Both the position numbers and the translations under genes were made by a program. The notes under the pieces were generated by a model. That model saw only the letters and a list, made by a program, of their open reading frames with translations, made no database searches and had not been told where the DNA came from. From an uncultured Planctomycetota bacterium (GTDB lineage: Bacteria > Planctomycetota > GCA-002687715 > CAIWVZ01), in the NCBI GenBank assembly GCA_903916245.1, contig CAIWVZ010000038.1, positions 1 to 53,038 on the forward strand: DNA of 53,038 nucleotides, written 5' to 3'. Positions 3,744-39,377 of the stretch are shown piece after piece. Position 1 is the first letter of the stretch. Each line of letters opens with the position of its first letter.

Positions 3744-4793
3744 TCAGCGCTTGCCTTCGGCGAACGCGGCGTCGAACGCGCGCCCCGAAGTCGGGAAATC
3801 GAGGCGTCGCACGAAGGCGCATGCCTCCGCCGCACCGGCCTCGCGGTCCATCATCGGGTCCTCCCATTCGACGCTGAGAGGTCCTTTGTAATGCGCGTGA
3901 TTCAAAGCGCGCAGGATCGCTTCGAAATCGAGGCGTCCGCGACCCGGCGATCGGAAATCCCACTGACGGCCGCGCGCTCCGAATTCGGTGTGACCGCCGA
4001 AGACGCCCGCTTCGGTAGGAACGTCGGACCACCACGAATCCTTCACGTGGACGTGGCGAATCCGAGCGCCGAACTCCCGGATGATGCCGAGGTAGTCGAC
4101 GCCCTGATAGGCGAAGTGCGACGGATCGAAGTTGAACCCGAAGCGCGGGTGATGGCCGACCGCCTCGAGCGTGCGACGGGTCGATGCGATATCGAACGCG
4201 ATTTCCGTCGGATGGATTTCGAGCGCCCATTCGATGTTCTCGCGGTCGAACACCGTGAGAATGTCCTTCCACGTTTCGCCGACTTCGCGGAATCCGGCGT
4301 CGATCTGCCCCGGCACGCAGGGCGGGAACGCATAGAGCAGATGCCAAATCGGACTGCCCGTGAAACCGTTCACGGCGACGTAGCCCATTTTCGCATGCCG
4401 CTCCTTCACTTCGGGCGGCGCGGCGTCGAAGAACTTGCGCGCCGCGCGCGCGGTGTCCTTCATCTCTTCGATCGCACGACGCCGCACTCCGGCGGGGTCG
4501 CCGTCTCCCCACACGTGGGCGGGCAAGATCGACTTGTGCCGCACATCGATCACGTCGCAGGTCGCCTGCCCCGTGAGGTGGTTCGAAATCGCCCAGCAGA
4601 AAAGACCGTGCTTGCGAAGCAACGCCCAGTGCCGCTTCGCCCAACCGTCGTCGGCGAGGCACGCGCGCACGTCGAAATGATCGCCCCAACAGGCGAGTTC
4701 CACGCCGTCGTAACCGAAGGCCTTCACCTTCGCGAGGAGCGCATCGAGAGGGAGATCGGCCCATTGGCCGGTGAACATCGTGACGGGGCGCAT
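3744..4793 (-). CDS. Sugar phosphate isomerase/epimerase (xylose isomerase-like TIM barrel)
   Basis: [42 protein letters not shown]...[17 protein letters not shown]...RHVHVKD. Confidence 0.85.
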
Positions 4794-28685: not shown

Positions 28686-28982
28686 CTATGGCTCAATCAC
28701 CTCCCAAGCATCGAGGGGAACGAGGTAGAACTTCAACGCGTATGCCTTTGCCGAATCGACCGAGTCCATCCAGTAATCCGCGATCCGATGATTCATAGCC
28801 CACGGACTCGACCCAGAGTCAGCCCGGTAGTACCACAGGAGGCACCCACCCCCGTCCGTACTACTCTCGATCTGAAGGCCTGACGGCAGATGTGGGTCAC
28901 TCTCAGCGAAAGGGACTCTCGATAACACGGCGTTTACATTGACGCATGCCCGAAGCTTCATTGTGGCGGTCTCCAAACTCAC
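28686..28982 (-). CDS. Candidate immunity protein for the RHS C-terminal toxin
   Basis: 98-aa ORF directly 3' of the RHS ORF with overlapping GTGA stop/start; alternative ATG at 28961 preceded by GGAG. Function inferred from position only. Confidence 0.5.
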   Translation of the reverse strand: MSLETATMKLRACVNVNAVLSRVPFAESDPHLPSGLQIESSTDGGGCLLWYYRADSGSSPWAMNHRIADYWMDSVDSAKAYALKFYLVPLDAWEVIEP

Positions 28983-31900
28983 TTAATCTGCCGATGGAAG
29001 TTCGAGTTCGCTCTCCCAGGGTTTAGCTCCTCAAAATGCACGTGCGGCCCACAAGGCGAGTCGACGCCCAGGATGTCGTTATCCGTCATCCTGAATTGTC
29101 GCACGCCGTCGGCCGAGACAAATCGACCTCCGCCACAGTCTTTGTAACCTGGGCCTAGGAATGTCATTCCGTCTTCGAGCGCCTCCGACGGATCAATCGG
29201 ATAAGGTGTATTTGCAGATCGAGCGGGCACTCCCGGGATGCGGCATGCTTCTTGGGCGCATCGCTTGACTGCAGCACACCGAGGTCCAGCACCCATTGGA
29301 CCTGTCGTGCCTCCAGTTGCCGATCCACTCCCAGCTTCAGCCGGTGGCCCACGCGGAGTCGAGTCAAAGGTTTCACCGGGTTTCGTCTTGTCAACTATCG
29401 AGCCATCAGCAGGTCTCCTGAGACTCGGAGTCGTCCCTCTTTCAAGGGGCGGCTTGGGCCTCTCGGGCGATCCACCGCCTGCACCTGGAGTTGACCCTGG
29501 ACGAGCATCGCGTGCGGGCCGATTGGATTTGGGCTTCTTCCAACGCTTGGCAGCTTCCTCGGCTTCACGCGCACGGTTCAGATTCCGCATCCGCACTGTC
29601 TGACCCGTTACATTGATTCCAAGCTCGATGACCTCGCTTGCCAGCTCCGCATCTTCCGGGTCGGCACCGGCAGCCAGCATCGCGTGCTTTGTTCCCTCCC
29701 CTGCCGCTGCTGCCACCCCTGCAAGGATCATCTGTCCACCCAGCAGTTGCATCCCACCTGCGAGAACTGGCAACGCTGCGCCGCCCGTCGCAACGACGAC
29801 CGCTGCCGTCGCAAGAGTCACGAGGATCTCAACGGCACCTTGCTGGCACGCGGCAGTGATTCCACTGATGATCATTGAGCCGACGGCGTCCCAAAATCCA
29901 CAGCCGCTCGGATCCAGGAACCTCAGCGGATTCCCCCCGGCGTATTGGTACCGATTCATCCCGTCGACGAACCCTGCGGGGTCAAGCTGGAGGAACCTCC
30001 CAATCGCAGGCGAGTACGCCCTCGCTCGGTAGTGGTACAGGCCGATTTCACTGTCGTAGACATGGCCTGTGTACCCAAACGGGTTGCCTACGGTTGACGA
30101 GGTGACGGGCTGGCCCTGCCCGTTGTAGATCTGAGTTTCACCGTTCGGGCCGTAGAAGTACCGTTCAACGACCGCCCCTGATCCATCCGTGATGGCGGAC
30201 ACGGAGCCCAGCCGATCCAGATGGCAGTAGAACGTGGAGGTCGCGGTCTCGATGACGGCAGCCCTGTCGATCCCGTCGCCGTGGATGAAGTGGGCGACCC
30301 GGGTGCCCGAGCCGTCGTACTCCTCCATGAGCTGGACGCCGTCGTAGACGAACGTTGAAGTCTTCGCGTTCGTCCCGAACACTTGTTTCCGGACTCGGCG
30401 GCCGACCGCGTCATACTCAAACGACACAAGCAATGCTGTCGTCGACGCATCCCGCACCTCGATCAGGTGGTTCGCCCAGTCGTAGGCGTAGGTCTTCACC
30501 CCGTCTGACTTCAGGTTCCCGTTCTGGTCATAGGTAAACGACACTCCCCCAACTGCACTGTAGGAGGACTCCAGACCTCCGGTGTACGACGTCGTGGCGG
30601 GGGTGCCCGATCCCCATGCGGTCCATGACGTCTGGCTGCGGTTTCCCCGTCCGTCGAGCGTCGATCCGAGCGTTCCCAGTGCCGAGGTTGGGTTCGTCAG
30701 GGCATTCGCGGCGATCGTCGACGAGGTCACCCTGTCGAGGTCGTCAACCGTGTGGAGGTCGTAGACCGACTCCGGCTGATATGCGACCGATGTCACGTTG
30801 TTCGCAGCGTCGTACCCGTAGCCGCGTCCGAAGAACACGCCGCCTGAGTTCGTGTGTTGTTCGAGGGATGGCCTGAGGTAGGAGTCGTAGTTCCGGGTCC
30901 AACTGACGCCGTTACCGAAGGATCCCGCGGTTCTTCTTGAGGCTCCAGTCCAGGTCGATGTGAAGAGAGTCCCTGTCGTCGGCGCGGCTCCCGTCACGGA
31001 CGTCACCCGCTTGAGAGCGTCCCGGACATAGTTGATCCCGCGACCACTCGGAGCCGTACGCGAGACCCGTGCTCCGTCGATGTCGTATCCGTAACTGACC
31101 GTCCGGCCGTCTTGCGATTCCGTGAGGAGGCGACCCAAGGAGCTGTAGCTGAGCGTGTCCGCATGGCCGGAGCCTGCGTTGTTGCTCGCGGAGATTAGAC
31201 GGTCGGCAGCGTCGTAGGCAAAGGACTCGGAGGTAGCCCCCACGACACCGCTCGCAAGCGTCATGGTCCGACCGGTCATGCGCCCAAGAGCGTCAAATGC
31301 CTGCTGGACAACCGTGCCGTTGCGGTCCGTCCAACGGGTCAGGTTGCCACCCGCATCGTGGACGAAGGTCTCGACCTTCGAGCCGGGATAGGTTGCGGAG
31401 GTACGCCTGTTCAGGTGATCGTAGGCAAACGAGACCGTCTCCCCTGCGGAGTCCGTCCGCGAGACCATCCGCCCCCCTGCGTCATAGGCAAAGGAGTCAA
31501 CGAGGTTGGTTCCGCCATGTGGGCGAGTCCGCGACGTCACCCGTCCAAGCCCGTCATAGGCCAGTCGCGTTTCGTTGCCGCGTGGATCGATCGACGTCAA
31601 CACACGACCGTCGACGTCGAAGATCGCGGTGGTCGTGAGGTTTGACTGGTTCTGCGCTCCCCCGATCGGGAGGTGGGACACCGTCGACACGTTCCCATCA
31701 ATGTCGTAGGAGATGTTCGTCTGGGCGGTCAGGACATCGGCGTTGTTGATCCGGTCGTACGCTGTCTCGGCGACCACCCTCCCTCCTGAGATGACGCGTG
31801 AGGACTTGTTCCCCAGCGCATCACGGGTGGACGTCAGCCTCCCGCCGCCGTCGTATTCAAAGGTCGTGGCCTGTCCCCCAGGGGCGACCGACTGCGTGAT

Positions 31901-31998
31901 CAATGCCGATCGATCAAAGCTCAGCCTCGACTGTGCATAGGTCGTCCCCGACACGAGGACATCTGAGCCATAGGTCCGGCCTCGCTCATCAATGAGAA
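28979..31998 (-). CDS. RHS/YD-repeat protein with polymorphic-toxin-like C-terminus; apparently 5'-truncated
   Basis: Many YD repeats (AYDGLGRVTSRTRPHGG..., FAYDAGGRMVSRTDSAGETVSFAYDHLNRRT...), RHS core GYTGHVYDSEIGLYHYRARAYSPAIGRFLQLDPAGFVDGMNRYQYAGGNPLRFLDPSG, then a unique tip ending GGGRFVSADGVRQFRMTDNDILGVDSPCGPHVHFEELNPGRANSNFHRQIK. Homology stops abruptly near 31998; the ORF is open to 32170. Confidence 0.85.
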
Positions 31999-32001
31999 CG
32001 C

Positions 32002-32577
32002 GTGGACGCCACCGTAAAGCGCGTGCTCGAATCTGCGTTTTTGATTCCAGAGGCAAGAAGTCCAATCGTGAAGTTGCTCCAAAGTGAGACGATTGGCGAC
32101 CAGACACTCGACGCAACGGATATCGTCGCCTCGCTTCGCAGGGCCACGATTCGCGTCGAGTTTCCGCCAATGCCCGATACCGACGAGCCGGCAGACTTGA
32201 TCACAAATCGCTTGCCTCGGGCGTCCTCAGCAAAAGCATCGTTGTCGTCTCCACGAGGCGTTTTGCCAGTCGACGGCAGCCGACTCACGATCATTGAACT
32301 GATTCAGTCCAAGCGGCTAACAGCGAAGACCGGACTCATTCATAAGTCGCGCCGAGGTGATTTGCACGCCGCGATTGAATCCGACGGACGGGTGACGTTC
32401 GAGGGCAAACAATGGCCAACGCTTTCTAGTGCAGGTGCTGCGGCACGTCGATCCGAGGCTCCCGGCCGATGGAAGAGCGACAACGTTCCCGCGACGAACG
32501 GTTGGACGTACTGGTACATAAGGCATCCGAAGACGGGTGCGCTTATGACGATGGATGATTTTGCGCGACAGCCATGA
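32002..32577 (+). CDS. RAMA-domain protein (possibly 5'-truncated)
   Basis: LTIIELIQSKRLTAKTGLIHKSRRGDLHAAIESDGRVTFEGKQWPTLSSAGAAARRSEAPGRWKSDNVPATNGWTYWYIRHPKTG matches the RAMA-style pattern (LI...G..L......A.I..DG.I...G....S.S.AA......NGW.YW). Confidence 0.6.
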   Translation: MDATVKRVLESAFLIPEARSPIVKLLQSETIGDQTLDATDIVASLRRATIRVEFPPMPDTDEPADLITNRLPRASSAKASLSSPRGVLPVDGSRLTIIELIQSKRLTAKTGLIHKSRRGDLHAAIESDGRVTFEGKQWPTLSSAGAAARRSEAPGRWKSDNVPATNGWTYWYIRHPKTGALMTMDDFARQP

Positions 32578-32715: not shown

Positions 32716-33183
32716 TTGGGCGTACGGTGCAGATGCTCAACGGTCTCGCGCTCACGTCATGGAGTCCTCGTACTTGACCACCGGGCTTTGAATTCGCGGC
32801 GCATGAGAGGTGCATGTCACACCGTGACTCTTGTCACGGTCAAGGCCTTGGACGACTTCCAACGCCTACGAGAATCACGACTCGACGTTGATGAGGTCAT
32901 GCGCGAGGTCAAGAAGTTGGTCAGCAGCCTTGCAAGCGTCGGCGATGTGATGGCATCGGGAACACTCAGCGAGCGACGGGACTTGTTGCAAGGATTGGTG
33001 CAGCGAATCGACTACGATCCGGCAACGGGCGCGGCGGATGTGACGTTCTTTGGGTTGCCTAGAGTCAATGTCGCCGGAGGATCTGACGGCGGAAGGAAAG
33101 CGTCCTCTTCTGCCTTGATGGCGGGCGCACGCAACCTCGTCTCAAAGAGAACGGTTTGGGTCGGGAGGAGGAGGGCTGGGTGA
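32716..33183 (+). pseudogene. Remnant 2: C-terminal part of serine-recombinase-like gene
   Basis: FQRLRESRLDVDEVMREVKKLVSSLASVGDVMASGTLSERRDLLQGLVQRIDYDPATGAADVTFFGLPRVNVAGG...SSALMAGARNLVSKRTVWV. The LLxGLVxRIDYDxxTGxxxVTF pattern resembles the C-terminus of serine site-specific recombinases; the catalytic N-terminus is absent. Confidence 0.6.
33114..33129. repeat. att-like core copy 2
   Basis: CTTGATGGCGGGCGCA, one mismatch to copies 1 and 3. Confidence 0.6.
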
Positions 33184-33488
33184 AGGGTGAAGTGTACCCA
33201 AAGGGGTGGGCAACAAGTGGCCGGACGGGGTTGGCCGATTGGATCCCGATGACCCGTCCGAGGCAAGAAAATCAAGGAGTTAAGGACCTGCATTTCTGGT
33301 CGATTTCAGGGATCTAAAGGCTATTTTCAATCCGGATTAGCGACTGCGACGCACAGAAATCTCACCCCAACACCGCCCCCCTTTCCAATTCCAGCCTCGA
33401 TCGGATACCGTCCACCCGTGTGGTGGGTCCCTTTCAGCCCAAAGGGGTAATCACCTTTCCGTACGCGAAAAAGTACATGGAGATAGTG

Positions 33489-33587
33489 ATGAAGGCTTTT
33501 CACGCAGTTTCCGCATTGTTCGCCATGGCGGCAGTCCTCTGCGCCCACGGCGATGAAGGTTTTACCCCCCCCCCCCCAGTAAATTAG
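33489..33587 (+). CDS. Signal-peptide mini-ORF out of frame with the downstream protease
   Basis: GGAG RBS, then MKAFHAVSALFAMAAVLCAHGDEGFTPPPPVN*; reads into a 13-C tract and stops at TAG 33585. Confidence 0.65.
   Translation: MKAFHAVSALFAMAAVLCAHGDEGFTPPPPVN
33565..33577. repeat. 13-nt poly-C homopolymer
   Basis: tttaCCCCCCCCCCCCCagtaaa read directly. Confidence 0.95.
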
Positions 33588-33610
33588 GGACGACACGGCG
33601 ACCGCCCCCT

Positions 33611-35677
33611 GTGGTTGTCGGGCAACTCACCCCGTGCAGGGCGGTTCCTGTGTGGATTTCGGGTCAACAAGTGCTGAAATGCAGCGAGCACGTCGGAGCA
33701 CACATCAAAACTCGACCCGAGTCGACAGTGTACCAACTCAGGGATGGAAATATCCGGATCATCGAACCAATGTGCGACGGTCATCACAGCCACGCGAACA
33801 AGCCAGACGTACTCTGGTTCGTCTGCCAAGCGGGTCCTCGCGTTGCGCCGAATGTCAACCCGGGTGTCGACTCGCCCTACTCGGCCGTTGACTACCCACC
33901 CAACCCAAACAACGCTGCACAGCCCGGAACACCAGAAACCCACGAGTTGATCACAAGGCACTGGAAGTATCCGAGGACGATTACGTACACGGTTCACAAG
34001 CCGTTCCCGATTACACCTGCTCCAACCTCGTGCGCTTTTCCCAATGTCATTCTGTGCAACATGAATGCGTTTGCTTACTCGACACCGGGGTACTACACCT
34101 ACGTTGACTTCGAGACGGACATCAACTCAATCTTTAGTGCCATCCAACAGAACAGCTTCCTCGACTTGCAATTCACAGCGTCCTCAGGCACCACCGATTG
34201 GGAGGCGGGCCTCCCTGCCACACCGGCCTTGGTTTCAACGGACTCATTCGAGTGGCGGGTAGGCGGGACACCAGCAGGACCTACGGGGAACGGTGTCAAC
34301 GACATCATCTTCCTTAAGAACCACTACTTCGTGGCATCCGGTGGGGGTGTCAGCATGGACGTCGATCCCGACAACGGCGCCATTAACGAGTGCGACATCA
34401 TGTTCTCAGCCCTTGTGCCTCCAGGGGCTCCTCCTGCATGGCCTGTGGGCGGTTACGGCCCACGATTTACCACCGGACTCATCCATGAGATCGGCCACTT
34501 TCTTGGCCTTGATCATACGAATTTGGCTCCTGGATGCGGGTCAAACAACATTCCGAATGGTGGAAGTCCAACGTCCTACGCGATCAACTTTGCGTCGACG
34601 AGCCAGTTTCCCGCCATGGTCGGCGCTTTCACCTGGGCATTTACTGCAACAGGCGTACCTGCAAATTACGTAGCGCAATTCGTCACGCAGTTCCCCGCAC
34701 TGGGCACGACACTACCGACGGGTGCCAATTCTGACGACCTCGCCGGCTTAGCGAGGCTATATCCAATTGCCATGTGCGATTCCCCGACTCTCGGCAAACT
34801 TCCTTGGATCAACCGTTTTGGGACGATTCGAGGCAAGGCGATCTATGCGGGCGTTCCGCAGTTTGGTGCGAATGTACTGCTTTCCAGCCACGTGGTGTCT
34901 GGCACGCCGGTAACGGTGCCGGGGGTCCCGGTCGTTGGGACCGTCAGCGGGACTGCACGCCTTGCGCCTACGTCCATCGTAGGCGCCTTGGACCTTGGCA
35001 CCAGCGCTGCGACCACCGGTGACTATCGGCTCATCCTCGTACCTACCGGAAGCTGGGATATCGTTGGAGAACCCCTAACTTCGGCTGGAATTTATCTTGC
35101 CCCAAACGCACTTCCAAACGGTGGCACCGGACTCTTCCCCGTCACTTTCGGCGAATGGTGGTACCACACGGCTACGGCACCGAATGCGTCGATTAATCCT
35201 GGGTACAATCCTCTTTGGAACACAACGACCAGCCCGGGGCAGACCGCCATCATCTCAAGTGCTGGCTCAGGTTCTACCCTGGATTCACTGCAGGTTGTTC
35301 CAGGCTCCGTGATCGACGTTCAGACTCCCCTGGAACTTGCAGGATCACCGGCATTCGAGAACGTCTCGCGACCCCTGGTGGAGATCCTCCAACGTGGTCT
35401 CGTCGGCGGCCTCATTCCCACTAGCATCACAATCCGCGTGACGACGGCGACGGTGAGGCCTCCCCCGCTCGTGGTGACGGCAAACGGAGCACTCGTTTCT
35501 CCTACATATGTCTCGGGCCCTGTCGGTGGCGGGCCCTTTCAATGGACGTTCAATCTTCCATCCGCGGCCATACCTTCGGGATCGGTTCGCCCGCTAAACG
35601 TCACAGCCACCGCCAAGGAGGGAACCACGCCACCCTATGGAACCTCGGTGTATGGCATCAACACCGTGATCTACTAG
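33611..35677 (+). CDS. Metzincin/matrixin-like metalloprotease domain protein
   Basis: HEIGHFLGLDHT zinc-binding motif (HExxHxxGxxH), later SDDLAGLARLYP typical of matrixin-like proteins. No signal peptide in its own frame; frame is open upstream through the poly-C tract to 33557. Confidence 0.8.
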   Translation: MVVGQLTPCRAVPVWISGQQVLKCSEHVGAHIKTRPESTVYQLRDGNIRIIEPMCDGHHSHANKPDVLWFVCQAGPRVAPNVNPGVDSPYSAVDYPPNPNNAAQPGTPETHELITRHWKYPRTITYTVHKPFPITPAPTSCAFPNVILCNMNAFAYSTPGYYTYVDFETDINSIFSAIQQNSFLDLQFTASSGTTDWEAGLPATPALVSTDSFEWRVGGTPAGPTGNGVNDIIFLKNHYFVASGGGVSMDVDPDNGAINECDIMFSALVPPGAPPAWPVGGYGPRFTTGLIHEIGHFLGLDHTNLAPGCGSNNIPNGGSPTSYAINFASTSQFPAMVGAFTWAFTATGVPANYVAQFVTQFPALGTTLPTGANSDDLAGLARLYPIAMCDSPTLGKLPWINRFGTIRGKAIYAGVPQFGANVLLSSHVVSGTPVTVPGVPVVGTVSGTARLAPTSIVGALDLGTSAATTGDYRLILVPTGSWDIVGEPLTSAGIYLAPNALPNGGTGLFPVTFGEWWYHTATAPNASINPGYNPLWNTTTSPGQTAIISSAGSGSTLDSLQVVPGSVIDVQTPLELAGSPAFENVSRPLVEILQRGLVGGLIPTSITIRVTTATVRPPPLVVTANGALVSPTYVSGPVGGGPFQWTFNLPSAAIPSGSVRPLNVTATAKEGTTPPYGTSVYGINTVIY

Positions 35678-35686
35678 GACAGCACC

Positions 35687-37468
35687 ATGCCAACGTCGAC
35701 AAATGGGACTTCGATGGCTGCTCGTCTCGCGCGAGGTATCGCTGCCTGTGTGCTGGCCGCTGCGTTCGCGCGCGGCCAGCTCATGAGGGACCTTTCGCCG
35801 ACCGCGTATTTCGCAACGAGCGGAATGCCGGTTTATTCGGGCATTCCGTATTCGCAATTCTCGCGGCCTCGCGTTGCGGATTTGAACGGCAACGGCCGGC
35901 CAGACCTCGTCATGTACGACGGCACCGCGGTCTCAGTGATGCTTGACCCAACGCTCGGCGTATCTACCGCCGCAACTGGCTACGAAACAGCCGGGGCACT
36001 CGCCTCGGGCGGAAGCAACGATCGCGTCGCCCCCCCCGCGGTATGCGACTTCAATGGAGACGGCTATCTAGATATCGTCGCCGTCCGGTATCAGATGAAT
36101 GGAGCCACAGGGACACCAGCAGATGCCAACTCCCACCCGACGCCATTCGTTATCTACCTCAACCAAGGGGATGGGACGTTTCAGTTGTCCCAGACCATTG
36201 CGGCATCGAGCACACTTCTCTTTCGCCATGACGCATTCGACATTGACGGGAACGGCCTCGGCGATCTGATTGTCACGACATGGGTGCCAACTACAACGTT
36301 CGGAGGGTACCAAGCGAACGTAACGGTATTCCTGAACAATGGGTCGACGTTAGTTCCAACCGGCGCAACATTTCCAGGGCCCAATGAAGGACGTTACGCC
36401 GGACATGGTGACTTTAACGGAGATGGACGTAGCGATCTGCTCTTTGCTTCGTCGCAGACGAACGTTCAATTTAGCCCATACTATGTCATGTTCGGTCTCC
36501 CGAACAATGCGTTTTCAAGCCCCGTTGCCTTCAACCAGTCTTATGTTGCCACCTACTTCACCGAGTTCATTCCAAAGATCGCCGACCTTGACAGCGATGG
36601 TTATGACGACATCGTGATTAGCTACCCTAGTCCGTCGATTCTCGTCTTTTGGGGAGGCCCCAATGTCCATCTCAATGGGGCACCAGCGACACCGATTGGG
36701 CAATTCCCAGCATGGCAGGGGCATGAATTTGTTGGGTGTTTTGACGTAGATGGTGACGGCACTCTCGACGTTGTGGGCACCGATTGGTTGCCGGGCGCTT
36801 GGATCTATCCAACCTACCCCCCATTTACCACACTGGTTATGTTGAGGAATCGCGGCGCTCGTCAGTTTTCGCCCACAGCCGTGAGCCTCGGTTCTTCGTT
36901 CAATAGCTCATACCCTGGCACAACCTTCAGTGGGTACGGCTTCACTCAACTTGCCTTCGCGGCGGCCGACTTCGACGGCGATGGAGATGTCGATTTGGTA
37001 GGCCTGCCAGGATGGGTTAATGCTCCCCAGACGAATCACCGAGCCATCTACTGGGAGAACACGTCCAACCTTCGCGGTGGGTGTGGGGGCATTGTCGGGA
37101 CGCCTTCGCTAACGTACTCAGCTGCGTACTTGGGTAACGCTGGATTCTCGCTCGGCATCACGGGTGCGGGTGCGACGGCACCTGCTGCCTTCATCGTTTC
37201 ACAGAGTCGCCACATGCTGACAGGGTGCGGTATCGTCCCAAATCTTGCCGTTGGTCAGGTGATTCTTCCAACCCCGTCGCTCGGGCTTACCATGACCGAT
37301 GCGCTTGGCTCCGCTTCGCTCGCGATTCCGCTTCCCAATGTCCAGTCTCTCATTGGGGGCCTCTACTACATCCAAGCCGGCGTAGTTGATCCGCTAGGTG
37401 GTTACCAGGTGGCCCCAGGGCTCAACCTCGCCCTTTCCAACGCCCACACCGTCCTGATCGGACCTTAG
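35687..37468 (+). CDS. Secreted FG-GAP/VCBS-repeat (beta-propeller) protein with planctomycete-type C-terminal domain
   Basis: Seven units such as PRVADLNGNGRPDLVMYDG, VCDFNGDGYLDIVAVRY, DAFDIDGNGLGDLIVTTW, GHGDFNGDGRSDLLFAS, IADLDSDGYDDIVISY, FDVDGDGTLDVVGTD, AADFDGDGDVDLVGLPG; signal peptide MAARLARGIAACVLAAAFARG. Confidence 0.88.
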   Translation: MPTSTNGTSMAARLARGIAACVLAAAFARGQLMRDLSPTAYFATSGMPVYSGIPYSQFSRPRVADLNGNGRPDLVMYDGTAVSVMLDPTLGVSTAATGYETAGALASGGSNDRVAPPAVCDFNGDGYLDIVAVRYQMNGATGTPADANSHPTPFVIYLNQGDGTFQLSQTIAASSTLLFRHDAFDIDGNGLGDLIVTTWVPTTTFGGYQANVTVFLNNGSTLVPTGATFPGPNEGRYAGHGDFNGDGRSDLLFASSQTNVQFSPYYVMFGLPNNAFSSPVAFNQSYVATYFTEFIPKIADLDSDGYDDIVISYPSPSILVFWGGPNVHLNGAPATPIGQFPAWQGHEFVGCFDVDGDGTLDVVGTDWLPGAWIYPTYPPFTTLVMLRNRGARQFSPTAVSLGSSFNSSYPGTTFSGYGFTQLAFAAADFDGDGDVDLVGLPGWVNAPQTNHRAIYWENTSNLRGGCGGIVGTPSLTYSAAYLGNAGFSLGITGAGATAPAAFIVSQSRHMLTGCGIVPNLAVGQVILPTPSLGLTMTDALGSASLAIPLPNVQSLIGGLYYIQAGVVDPLGGYQVAPGLNLALSNAHTVLIGP

Positions 37469-38308: not shown

Positions 38309-39093
38309 GTCGGCGTCCGTGACTTCACTTTCGAGGCTTGCTCAGGGTTCATTCGCATTATGGCCTGCCGGTTCGCAGAACTGACCTGACCCGCGGACAT
38401 TGGTCCGGGTCACAAGGTTGTCGTTCAGGTCGTAGACCATGACGGTGTCAAGATAGGTCGGCGACCCCCCGCCTGTCAAACGGCGACGGATTTTAGTGGT
38501 ACGCCCGAACTCGTCGTAGAGGGCGGCTACGACGTTCCCGTTAGGGTCTGTGGTCGTCCTGACGCGCCCAAAGCCGTCCACTGCGAAGGTGGTCGTGAGG
38601 GCGGTGTCGGAGCCCCCACCCCGTTGGCTCTCTGAGGTGAGGTAGCCGTCCCCATCGTAGGCGTACTCCACGACATAGGACTTGGTGGTCCCCCCTTCGG
38701 ACTCATCGGCAGTGGTCTTGGTGACACGGCCGGCTGCGTCAAGGTGCTTGGTGGTGGTGTTGCCGAGGGCGTCGGTCACCTTCGTCATGCGGCCGGCGGC
38801 ATCCATGGCGAAGGAGGTGGTGGTGGAGCCTCCCCCGCAGCCGCAGGAGTCGGTCTTTTGGGTGAGGCGGTCGGATTTGTCGTAGGCCATCGTCCCTTGG
38901 ATGGTCCCGCTGCCGATGTTGTCCGAGAGATTGGCCTTCTTGGCCCAGCGGGAGGTGGTGGTCACACGGTCGTTCTGGTCAAGCGCGTAGGTCGACTCCG
39001 TGAGCTTGGCGTTGGAGGAGTTGAACGCCTGAGAGGTGATGGCGTTCGAGTTCTTGTCGAGGGCCGTCACACGGTAGTGGGAGCCTGGGTCGA

Positions 39094-39377
<284 letters not shown>

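What the first reader, a model, noticed from the sequence alone, without database searches (positions are those of the whole stretch)
33489..35677. 13-C tract separates a signal peptide from a metzincin-like protease: candidate phase-variable (or frameshifted) exported enzyme
ATG 33489 (GGAG five nt upstream) gives MKAFHAVSALFAMAAVLCAHGDEGFTPPPPVN*, a near-ideal signal peptide that runs into 13 C and stops at TAG 33585. The protease ORF is in the next frame and open back through the tract to 33557. A tract of 14 C or 11 C, or a -1 ribosomal slip, gives a continuous MKAF...GFTPPPPSKLGTTRRPPPVVVGQLTPC... protein; 12 or 13 C ends early. Homopolymeric C tracts in the 5' coding region are the classic phase-variation device in other bacteria. 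As written, the protease (HEIGHFLGLDHT) has no export signal.
Basis: partly seen in the sequence, partly recalled or inferred. Interest (0 to 1): 0.8.

Follow-up and report, generated by a model that had tools for sequence, protein, structure and literature searches.

The report
Repeat-switched signal peptide of secreted protease
A run of 13 C's cuts the export signal off from a metal-dependent protease gene, and most relatives of this gene carry other unstable repeats near the same place, so the gene is probably switched on and off at random by slippage, a trick mostly described in animal pathogens.

Summary
C13 at 33565-33577 separates a signal-peptide ORF (ATG 33489, SD GGAG) from an open 706-codon metzincin-like frame. 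It is the only C/G run of 11 or more in the 3.17 Mb genome. In 291 kb of this genome, 16 SD-ATGs head signal-like peptides: 15 open ORFs of at least 190 aa and the 16th is this leader.

The strongest evidence comes from relatives. The protease family (5 of 12 genomes of the order, none detected elsewhere in the phylum) carries frame-breaking repeats near the start of most copies: (GACTCACG)n, (ACTCAAGG)n, (CCCAGAG)n, (GGCTCTC)n. The SD-ATG is out of register in nearly all. Four near-identical 5' ends in one genome have n=4, 5, 5, 6. Two repeat-free members are in frame. Two out-of-register paralogues show dN/dS of about 0.15, so they are not decaying. The same order holds poly-C/G or octamer repeats at the start of other secreted-protein genes, some in frame, some out.

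Best explanation: a slipped-strand (contingency) phase-variable exported protease, here captured OFF. It works like Neisseria Opa and NalP. Not shown: tract-length variation within the population, and expression. Mechanism known; lineage and gene family apparently new.

The parts
33479..33482 (+). Shine-Dalgarno GGAG, 6 nt before ATG 33489
   Evidence: sequence; same SD-ATG layout at the family homologues
33489..33587 (+). leader ORF encoding a signal peptide, MKAFHAVSALFAMAAVLCAHG|DEGF..., stopped by TAG just after the tract
   Evidence: signal-peptide specificity test
33565..33577 (+). C13 homopolymer, putative slippage tract
   Evidence: only run >=11 in the genome
33557..35677 (+). metzincin-like protease reading frame (open 706 codons); homology to the family begins about 33617-33629
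34484..34519 (+). zinc-site motif HEIGHFLGLDHT
   Evidence: H, E, H and H invariant in the nine-member alignment
35687..37468 (+). FG-GAP repeat secreted protein, 9 nt after the protease stop; the protease/FG-GAP pair recurs in most homologous loci
   Evidence: PF13517, 2.4e-30

Best explanation
The locus is a contingency (phase-variable) gene for an exported metzincin-like zinc protease, first gene of a conserved pair with an FG-GAP propeller protein. Slipped-strand mispairing at C13 changes the register between the signal peptide and the mature enzyme. With 13 C's (as assembled) translation from the SD-ATG stops after 32 residues (OFF); about one tract length in three joins signal peptide and enzyme (ON). 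In relatives the same kind of switch is built from 7- or 8-nt repeats placed between the ATG and the signal-peptide core. Shown: the tract, the two frames, the leader, the recurrent repeats, repeat-number differences between near-identical copies, and intact, purifying-selected ORFs. Inferred: slippage within the population, expression, secretion, protease activity.
For: (1) Sequence facts. (2) The leader is a true signal peptide by in-genome specificity: 15 of 16 such leaders head long ORFs and it is the 16th. (3) Homologues: G009:C75, C89, C43, C12 carry octamer repeats, G004:C11 and four G003 copies heptamer repeats, right after an SD-ATG; the ATG is out of register with the enzyme or signal-peptide frame in all but one, and that one (G003:C274) has a TGA directly after the repeat. 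(4) Four G003 copies share nearly identical flanks but have n=4, 5, 5, 6. (5) Repeat-free members G009:C33 and G008:C14 are in frame. (6) Out-of-register paralogues G009:C75 and C89 have dN 0.21, dS 1.38, so their ORFs are selected. (7) In 1.90 Mb scanned, non-triplet tandem repeats (unit 4-12) are very rare and nearly all sit at an SD-ATG; away from contig ends 6 of 7 meet the criterion against 10.5% of random positions. (8) Other genes of the order: G008:C33 C12 before the signal peptide, out of frame; its 37% identical paralogue G008:C46 C13 inside the signal peptide, in frame; G010:C76 S9 peptidase G13 after the signal peptide, in frame; G007:C488 (ACTCAAGG)4 out of frame.
Against: No read-level or strain-level evidence of length variation at C13. 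The two same-genus genomes lack the gene, so there is no close orthologue to compare. All data are assemblies, mostly metagenomic. Repeat-bearing metzincin copies are mostly out of register (about 1 of 10 in register, where a third would be expected; probability about 0.1 under random register). The phylum-wide excess of poly-C after SD-ATG is modest: 47 genomes against 19 with the backward control for the near spacing, 43 against 29 for the far spacing.
Confidence: 0.72

Rival explanations
1. Assembly or library miscount: the real tract has an in-frame length and the gene is an ordinary, constitutively exported protease.
For: Homopolymers of 13 are error-prone in library PCR and assembly (general knowledge); the genome is a 460-contig assembly; some relatives have in-frame tracts (G008:C46 with C13).
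Against: Does not explain why relatives have unrelated 7-8 nt repeats, which are much less error-prone than homopolymers, in the same region and also out of register, nor the n=4, 5, 5, 6 series. Even if the count is off, a C run this long remains hypermutable.
Confidence: 0.15
2. Pseudogene: a chance frameshift has killed the protease gene in this lineage.
For: Frames are disconnected; RHS-repeat genes and short recombinase-like remnants lie nearby; one relative, G009:C18, looks degraded, with an imperfect repeat and a truncated catalytic motif, and G003:C274 has a TGA after its repeat.
Against: About 700 codons remain open with every invariant family residue present; the break falls exactly in the only long homopolymer of the genome; out-of-register paralogues with dS about 1.4 show strong purifying selection.
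Confidence: 0.07
3. Recoding: ribosomal or RNA-polymerase slippage on C13 makes the joined protein from the unchanged DNA.
For: Long homopolymers can cause slippage by polymerase or ribosome (general knowledge); the required shift at C13 is a single -1.
Against: Relatives use 7-8 nt units with no evident slippery site, and the register change they need differs between copies, so a fixed recoding event cannot serve the family.
Confidence: 0.05
4. The protease starts at GTG 33611 as a cytoplasmic protein and the leader is fortuitous.
For: The homologous part begins only at about 33617-33629, so a GTG 33611 start keeps the whole conserved domain.
Against: No Shine-Dalgarno sequence before GTG 33611; the leader has one and is signal-like at very high in-genome specificity; relatives encode a hydrophobic leader in the protease frame before the same domain, and leader codons of G009:C43 and C12 differ mostly at third positions (15, 9, 26).
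Confidence: 0.01

Closest known systems
Neisseria opa genes (CTCTT repeats in the leader-peptide coding region)
   Same: Non-triplet tandem repeat in the 5' leader-peptide coding region of a multigene surface-protein family; repeat number sets the frame (PMC3960869).
   Different: 7- or 8-nt units or poly-C instead of a pentamer; zinc-protease-like enzymes instead of adhesins; another lineage; switching not yet observed.
Neisseria meningitidis NalP and MspA autotransporters (poly-C tract)
   Same: Exported protease switched by a poly-C tract in its coding sequence, observed lengths 6-15 C, ON only at every third length (PMC3723659).
   Different: NalP is an autotransporter; the protein here is a metzincin-like enzyme without a recognised translocator domain, and the tract lies between signal peptide and mature domain.
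Metzincin zinc proteases (serralysins, reprolysins, karilysin/matrixins)
   Same: HExxHxxGxxH site; weak profile matches to serralysins (E about 0.004) and karilysin (E 0.1) in the PDB, and to Reprolysin_5 for one member (E 0.004).
   Different: No Pfam or NCBIfam family is hit by the window protein; large extra N- and C-terminal regions; found only in this order so far.

Membership tests
SSR contingency (phase-variable) locus | non-triplet simple repeat or long homopolymer inside the 5' coding region | tested here: met
   C13 between signal peptide and protease
SSR contingency (phase-variable) locus | tract unusually long for the genome | tested here: met
   only run >=11 in 3.17 Mb, about 0.04 runs >=13 expected
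SSR contingency (phase-variable) locus | repeat number varies between close copies of the family | tested here: met
   n=4, 5, 5, 6 in four G003 copies with near-identical flanks, (in relatives, not at the window locus)
SSR contingency (phase-variable) locus | tract length varies within one population at this locus | not testable with these tools
   no reads or second strain; same-genus genomes lack the gene
SSR contingency (phase-variable) locus | downstream ORF maintained by selection although out of frame | tested here: met
   dN/dS about 0.15 between out-of-register paralogues G009:C75 and C89; 700 open codons in the window
SSR contingency (phase-variable) locus | ON/OFF switching of protein shown | not testable with these tools
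   needs reporter or proteomics
Metzincin protease | HExxHxxGxxH zinc site | tested here: met
   HEIGHFLGLDH; histidines and glutamate invariant in nine members
Metzincin protease | Met-turn and metzincin fold | tested here: inconclusive
   a Met follows in most but not all members; AlphaFold model too poor, mean pLDDT 38.5, so no fold search was run
Metzincin protease | match above a curated family threshold | tested here: not met
   no Pfam or NCBIfam hit for the window protein; hence 'metzincin-like' only

The most novel reading that the evidence does not exclude
This order of bacteria runs a phase-variable secretome: slippage repeats of several kinds (poly-C/G, heptamers, octamers) have been acquired repeatedly and placed at or within the signal peptides of secreted proteases and carbohydrate-active-like proteins, so that clonal populations diversify which enzymes they export.
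Probability: 0.45. Interest if true: 0.78.

Novelty: new member of a known kind. Interest (0 to 1): 0.62.

Why it matters
Phase variation by slippage has been described mainly in bacterial pathogens and their surface features (PMC11475388; [quoted passage not shown] Here the targets are secreted degradative enzymes in a lineage represented only by unnamed, mostly fragmentary assemblies. That suggests bet-hedging on costly exoenzymes or on surface exposure, and gives directly testable loci. It also means that gene callers will truncate such proteins, call them pseudogenes or lose their signal peptides.

Tried and rejected
Pfam and NCBIfam on the protease: nothing. The AlphaFold model of the protease was poor (mean pLDDT 38.5), so no fold search was run. 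Several poly-C/G runs in relatives are contig-end artefacts or next to gaps (G008:C24, C36; G010:C141) and were not counted. A literature search for phase variation together with Planctomycetota found nothing, but the phylum is not established, so this says little.

Full report
The tract is C13 at 33565-33577, and it is the only C or G run of 11 or more in the 3.17 Mb, 460-contig assembly in which the window lies. The assembly has 35 runs of 8 or more; extrapolating the decay of run lengths in 291 kb gives about 0.04 runs of 13 or more expected per genome. The leader ORF starts at ATG 33489, six bases after GGAG, and ends at TAG 33585. The protease frame is open from 33557 to 35677. The two are out of register, and 13 C's do not join them.

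The leader is real. I asked how often an ATG with a Shine-Dalgarno sequence in this genome heads a peptide with a positive start, a 12-residue uncharged hydrophobic core and a cleavage-like motif. Of 345 candidates in 291 kb, 16 qualify; 15 open ORFs of 190 to 706 residues, and the sixteenth is this leader. So a signal peptide has been cut off from its protein, and the only long open frame after it is the protease.

The protease belongs to a family confined, in the genomes held, to this order: 5 of 12 genomes of the order and none of the other genomes in a 392-genome sample of the phylum. The family has an invariant HExGHxxGLxHTNL motif and a DDxxxxxxxYP motif. The window protein matches no Pfam or NCBIfam model, and the family profile gives weak matches to serralysins and karilysin in the PDB, so it is called metzincin-like here. 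In most loci it is followed immediately by an FG-GAP propeller gene with its own signal peptide, as in the window. G009:C33 is an exception.

The relatives decide the interpretation. Reading the DNA before the conserved domain shows an SD-ATG followed at once by tandem repeats: (GACTCACG) about 4 and 3 copies at G009:C75 and C89, (ACTCAAGG) about 4 at G009:C43 and C12, (CCCAGAG) about 5.5 at G004:C11, and (GGCTCTC) 4 to 6 at four places in G003. None of these units is a multiple of three. In the assemblies the ATG is out of register with the signal-peptide core and enzyme in every case but G003:C274, which is in register but has a TGA right after the repeat. For G003:C40, cut by the contig end, the register is inferred from its sister copies, where in-frame means n divisible by three. 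G008:C3 lacks such an array but has an 11-base direct repeat spaced 14 bases in its leader and is also out of register; G009:C18 has a degenerate repeat and a truncated catalytic motif. Two members without repeats, G009:C33 and G008:C14, are in register.

Three findings argue against decay. Repeat number differs between copies with almost identical flanks: n is 4, 5, 5 and 6 in G003. The two octamer-bearing paralogues G009:C75 and C89, both out of register, have dN 0.213 and dS 1.376, so their ORFs have been under strong purifying selection over a long time. The leader between repeat and domain evolves like coding sequence in the protease frame in the G009:C43 and C12 pair, with 15, 9 and 26 differences at codon positions 1, 2 and 3; other pairs are less clear.

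The device is not limited to this family. In 1.90 Mb sampled from five genomes, non-triplet tandem repeats of unit 4-12 are very rare. Away from contig ends there are seven, and six of them sit at an SD-ATG followed by a long open frame, against 10.5% of random positions. Five of these seven belong to the metzincin family, whose contigs were deliberately sampled, so the family-independent support is the two G003 loci (C4, C12), plus G007:C488, found by pattern search with the same ACTCAAGG unit in front of an unrelated secreted protein. Poly-C or poly-G runs of 11-13 occur at the start of other genes of the order. G008:C33 and C46 are 37% identical DUF5060-type secreted proteins, one with C12 before its signal peptide and out of frame, the other with C13 inside its signal peptide and in frame. 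G010:C76 is an S9 peptidase with G13 after its signal peptide, in frame; G011:C197 is a glycosyltransferase with G11, out of frame. Across 392 phylum genomes, poly-C10 just after an SD-ATG is found in 47 genomes against 19 for the backward control; for the spacing of the window, 43 against 29. Among the loci read from these searches, tracts of 12 or more C's before a long open frame are mostly out of register, including one C15 inside a signal peptide (G026:C115), while leaders with a hydrophobic core and only 10-11 C's are mostly in frame. The phylum-wide signal is therefore present but modest.

Mechanism. The best-supported reading is slipped-strand phase variation that connects or disconnects the signal peptide and the enzyme. 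It works like Neisseria opa, where CTCTT repeats lie in the leader-peptide coding region (PMC3960869), and like NalP, an exported protease with a poly-C tract of 6-15 that is ON only at every third length (PMC3723659). Membership in the class of contingency loci needs observed length variation or switching; variation is seen among relatives' copies but could not be tested at the window locus. The main rival for this one locus is an assembly miscount of the homopolymer. It cannot be excluded, but it does not touch the 7- and 8-nt repeat evidence. Recoding is unlikely because the relatives' units have no evident slippery site and different copies need different shifts.

Limits: all sequences are assemblies, mostly fragmentary. 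The organism and phylum could not be named with the tools at hand. No reads are available. Protease activity and fold are inferred from motif and weak profile matches; the structure model was too poor to use.

Noticed in passing
L024 (G011:C197), tract at 1501: G11 run about 14 codons into a glycosyltransferase gene (MKILFITNHVLSGNGGGG...), out of frame in the assembly: a classic phase-variable glycosyltransferase layout.
   Followed up: partly
L221 (G008:C33) and L222 (G008:C46): Two DUF5060-type secreted paralogues (37% identical) carry poly-C tracts at different points of the leader (before and inside the signal peptide), one out of frame and one in frame.
   Followed up: yes
L175 minus strand, 4123-4155 (G003:C4): (ATGGTCGC)x4 repeat that itself carries start codons, before a signal peptide LLLVLAFVFPLIPAGSAAQ; every register offers a start at a different distance from the Shine-Dalgarno.
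   Followed up: partly
window 28979-32170 (-) and 38342-39142 (-): RHS-repeat proteins flank the protease/FG-GAP pair on both sides.
   Followed up: partly
window 32716-33183 (+) and 38979-39278 (-): ORFs around both sides of the pair share the peptide LG(N/T)PKNVTSAAPV(A/S)GS (also on the minus strand at 33012-33293), looking like remnants of one recombinase-like gene; no Pfam hit.
   Followed up: partly
L014 (G009:C18): Metzincin paralogue with degenerate octamer repeat and a frame ending inside the catalytic motif (HEIGQP): apparently a decaying copy.
   Followed up: partly
G008:C24, G008:C36, G010:C141 contig ends: Very long poly-C/poly-G at contig ends, most likely sequencing or assembly artefacts; a caution for automated tract surveys.
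   Followed up: yes
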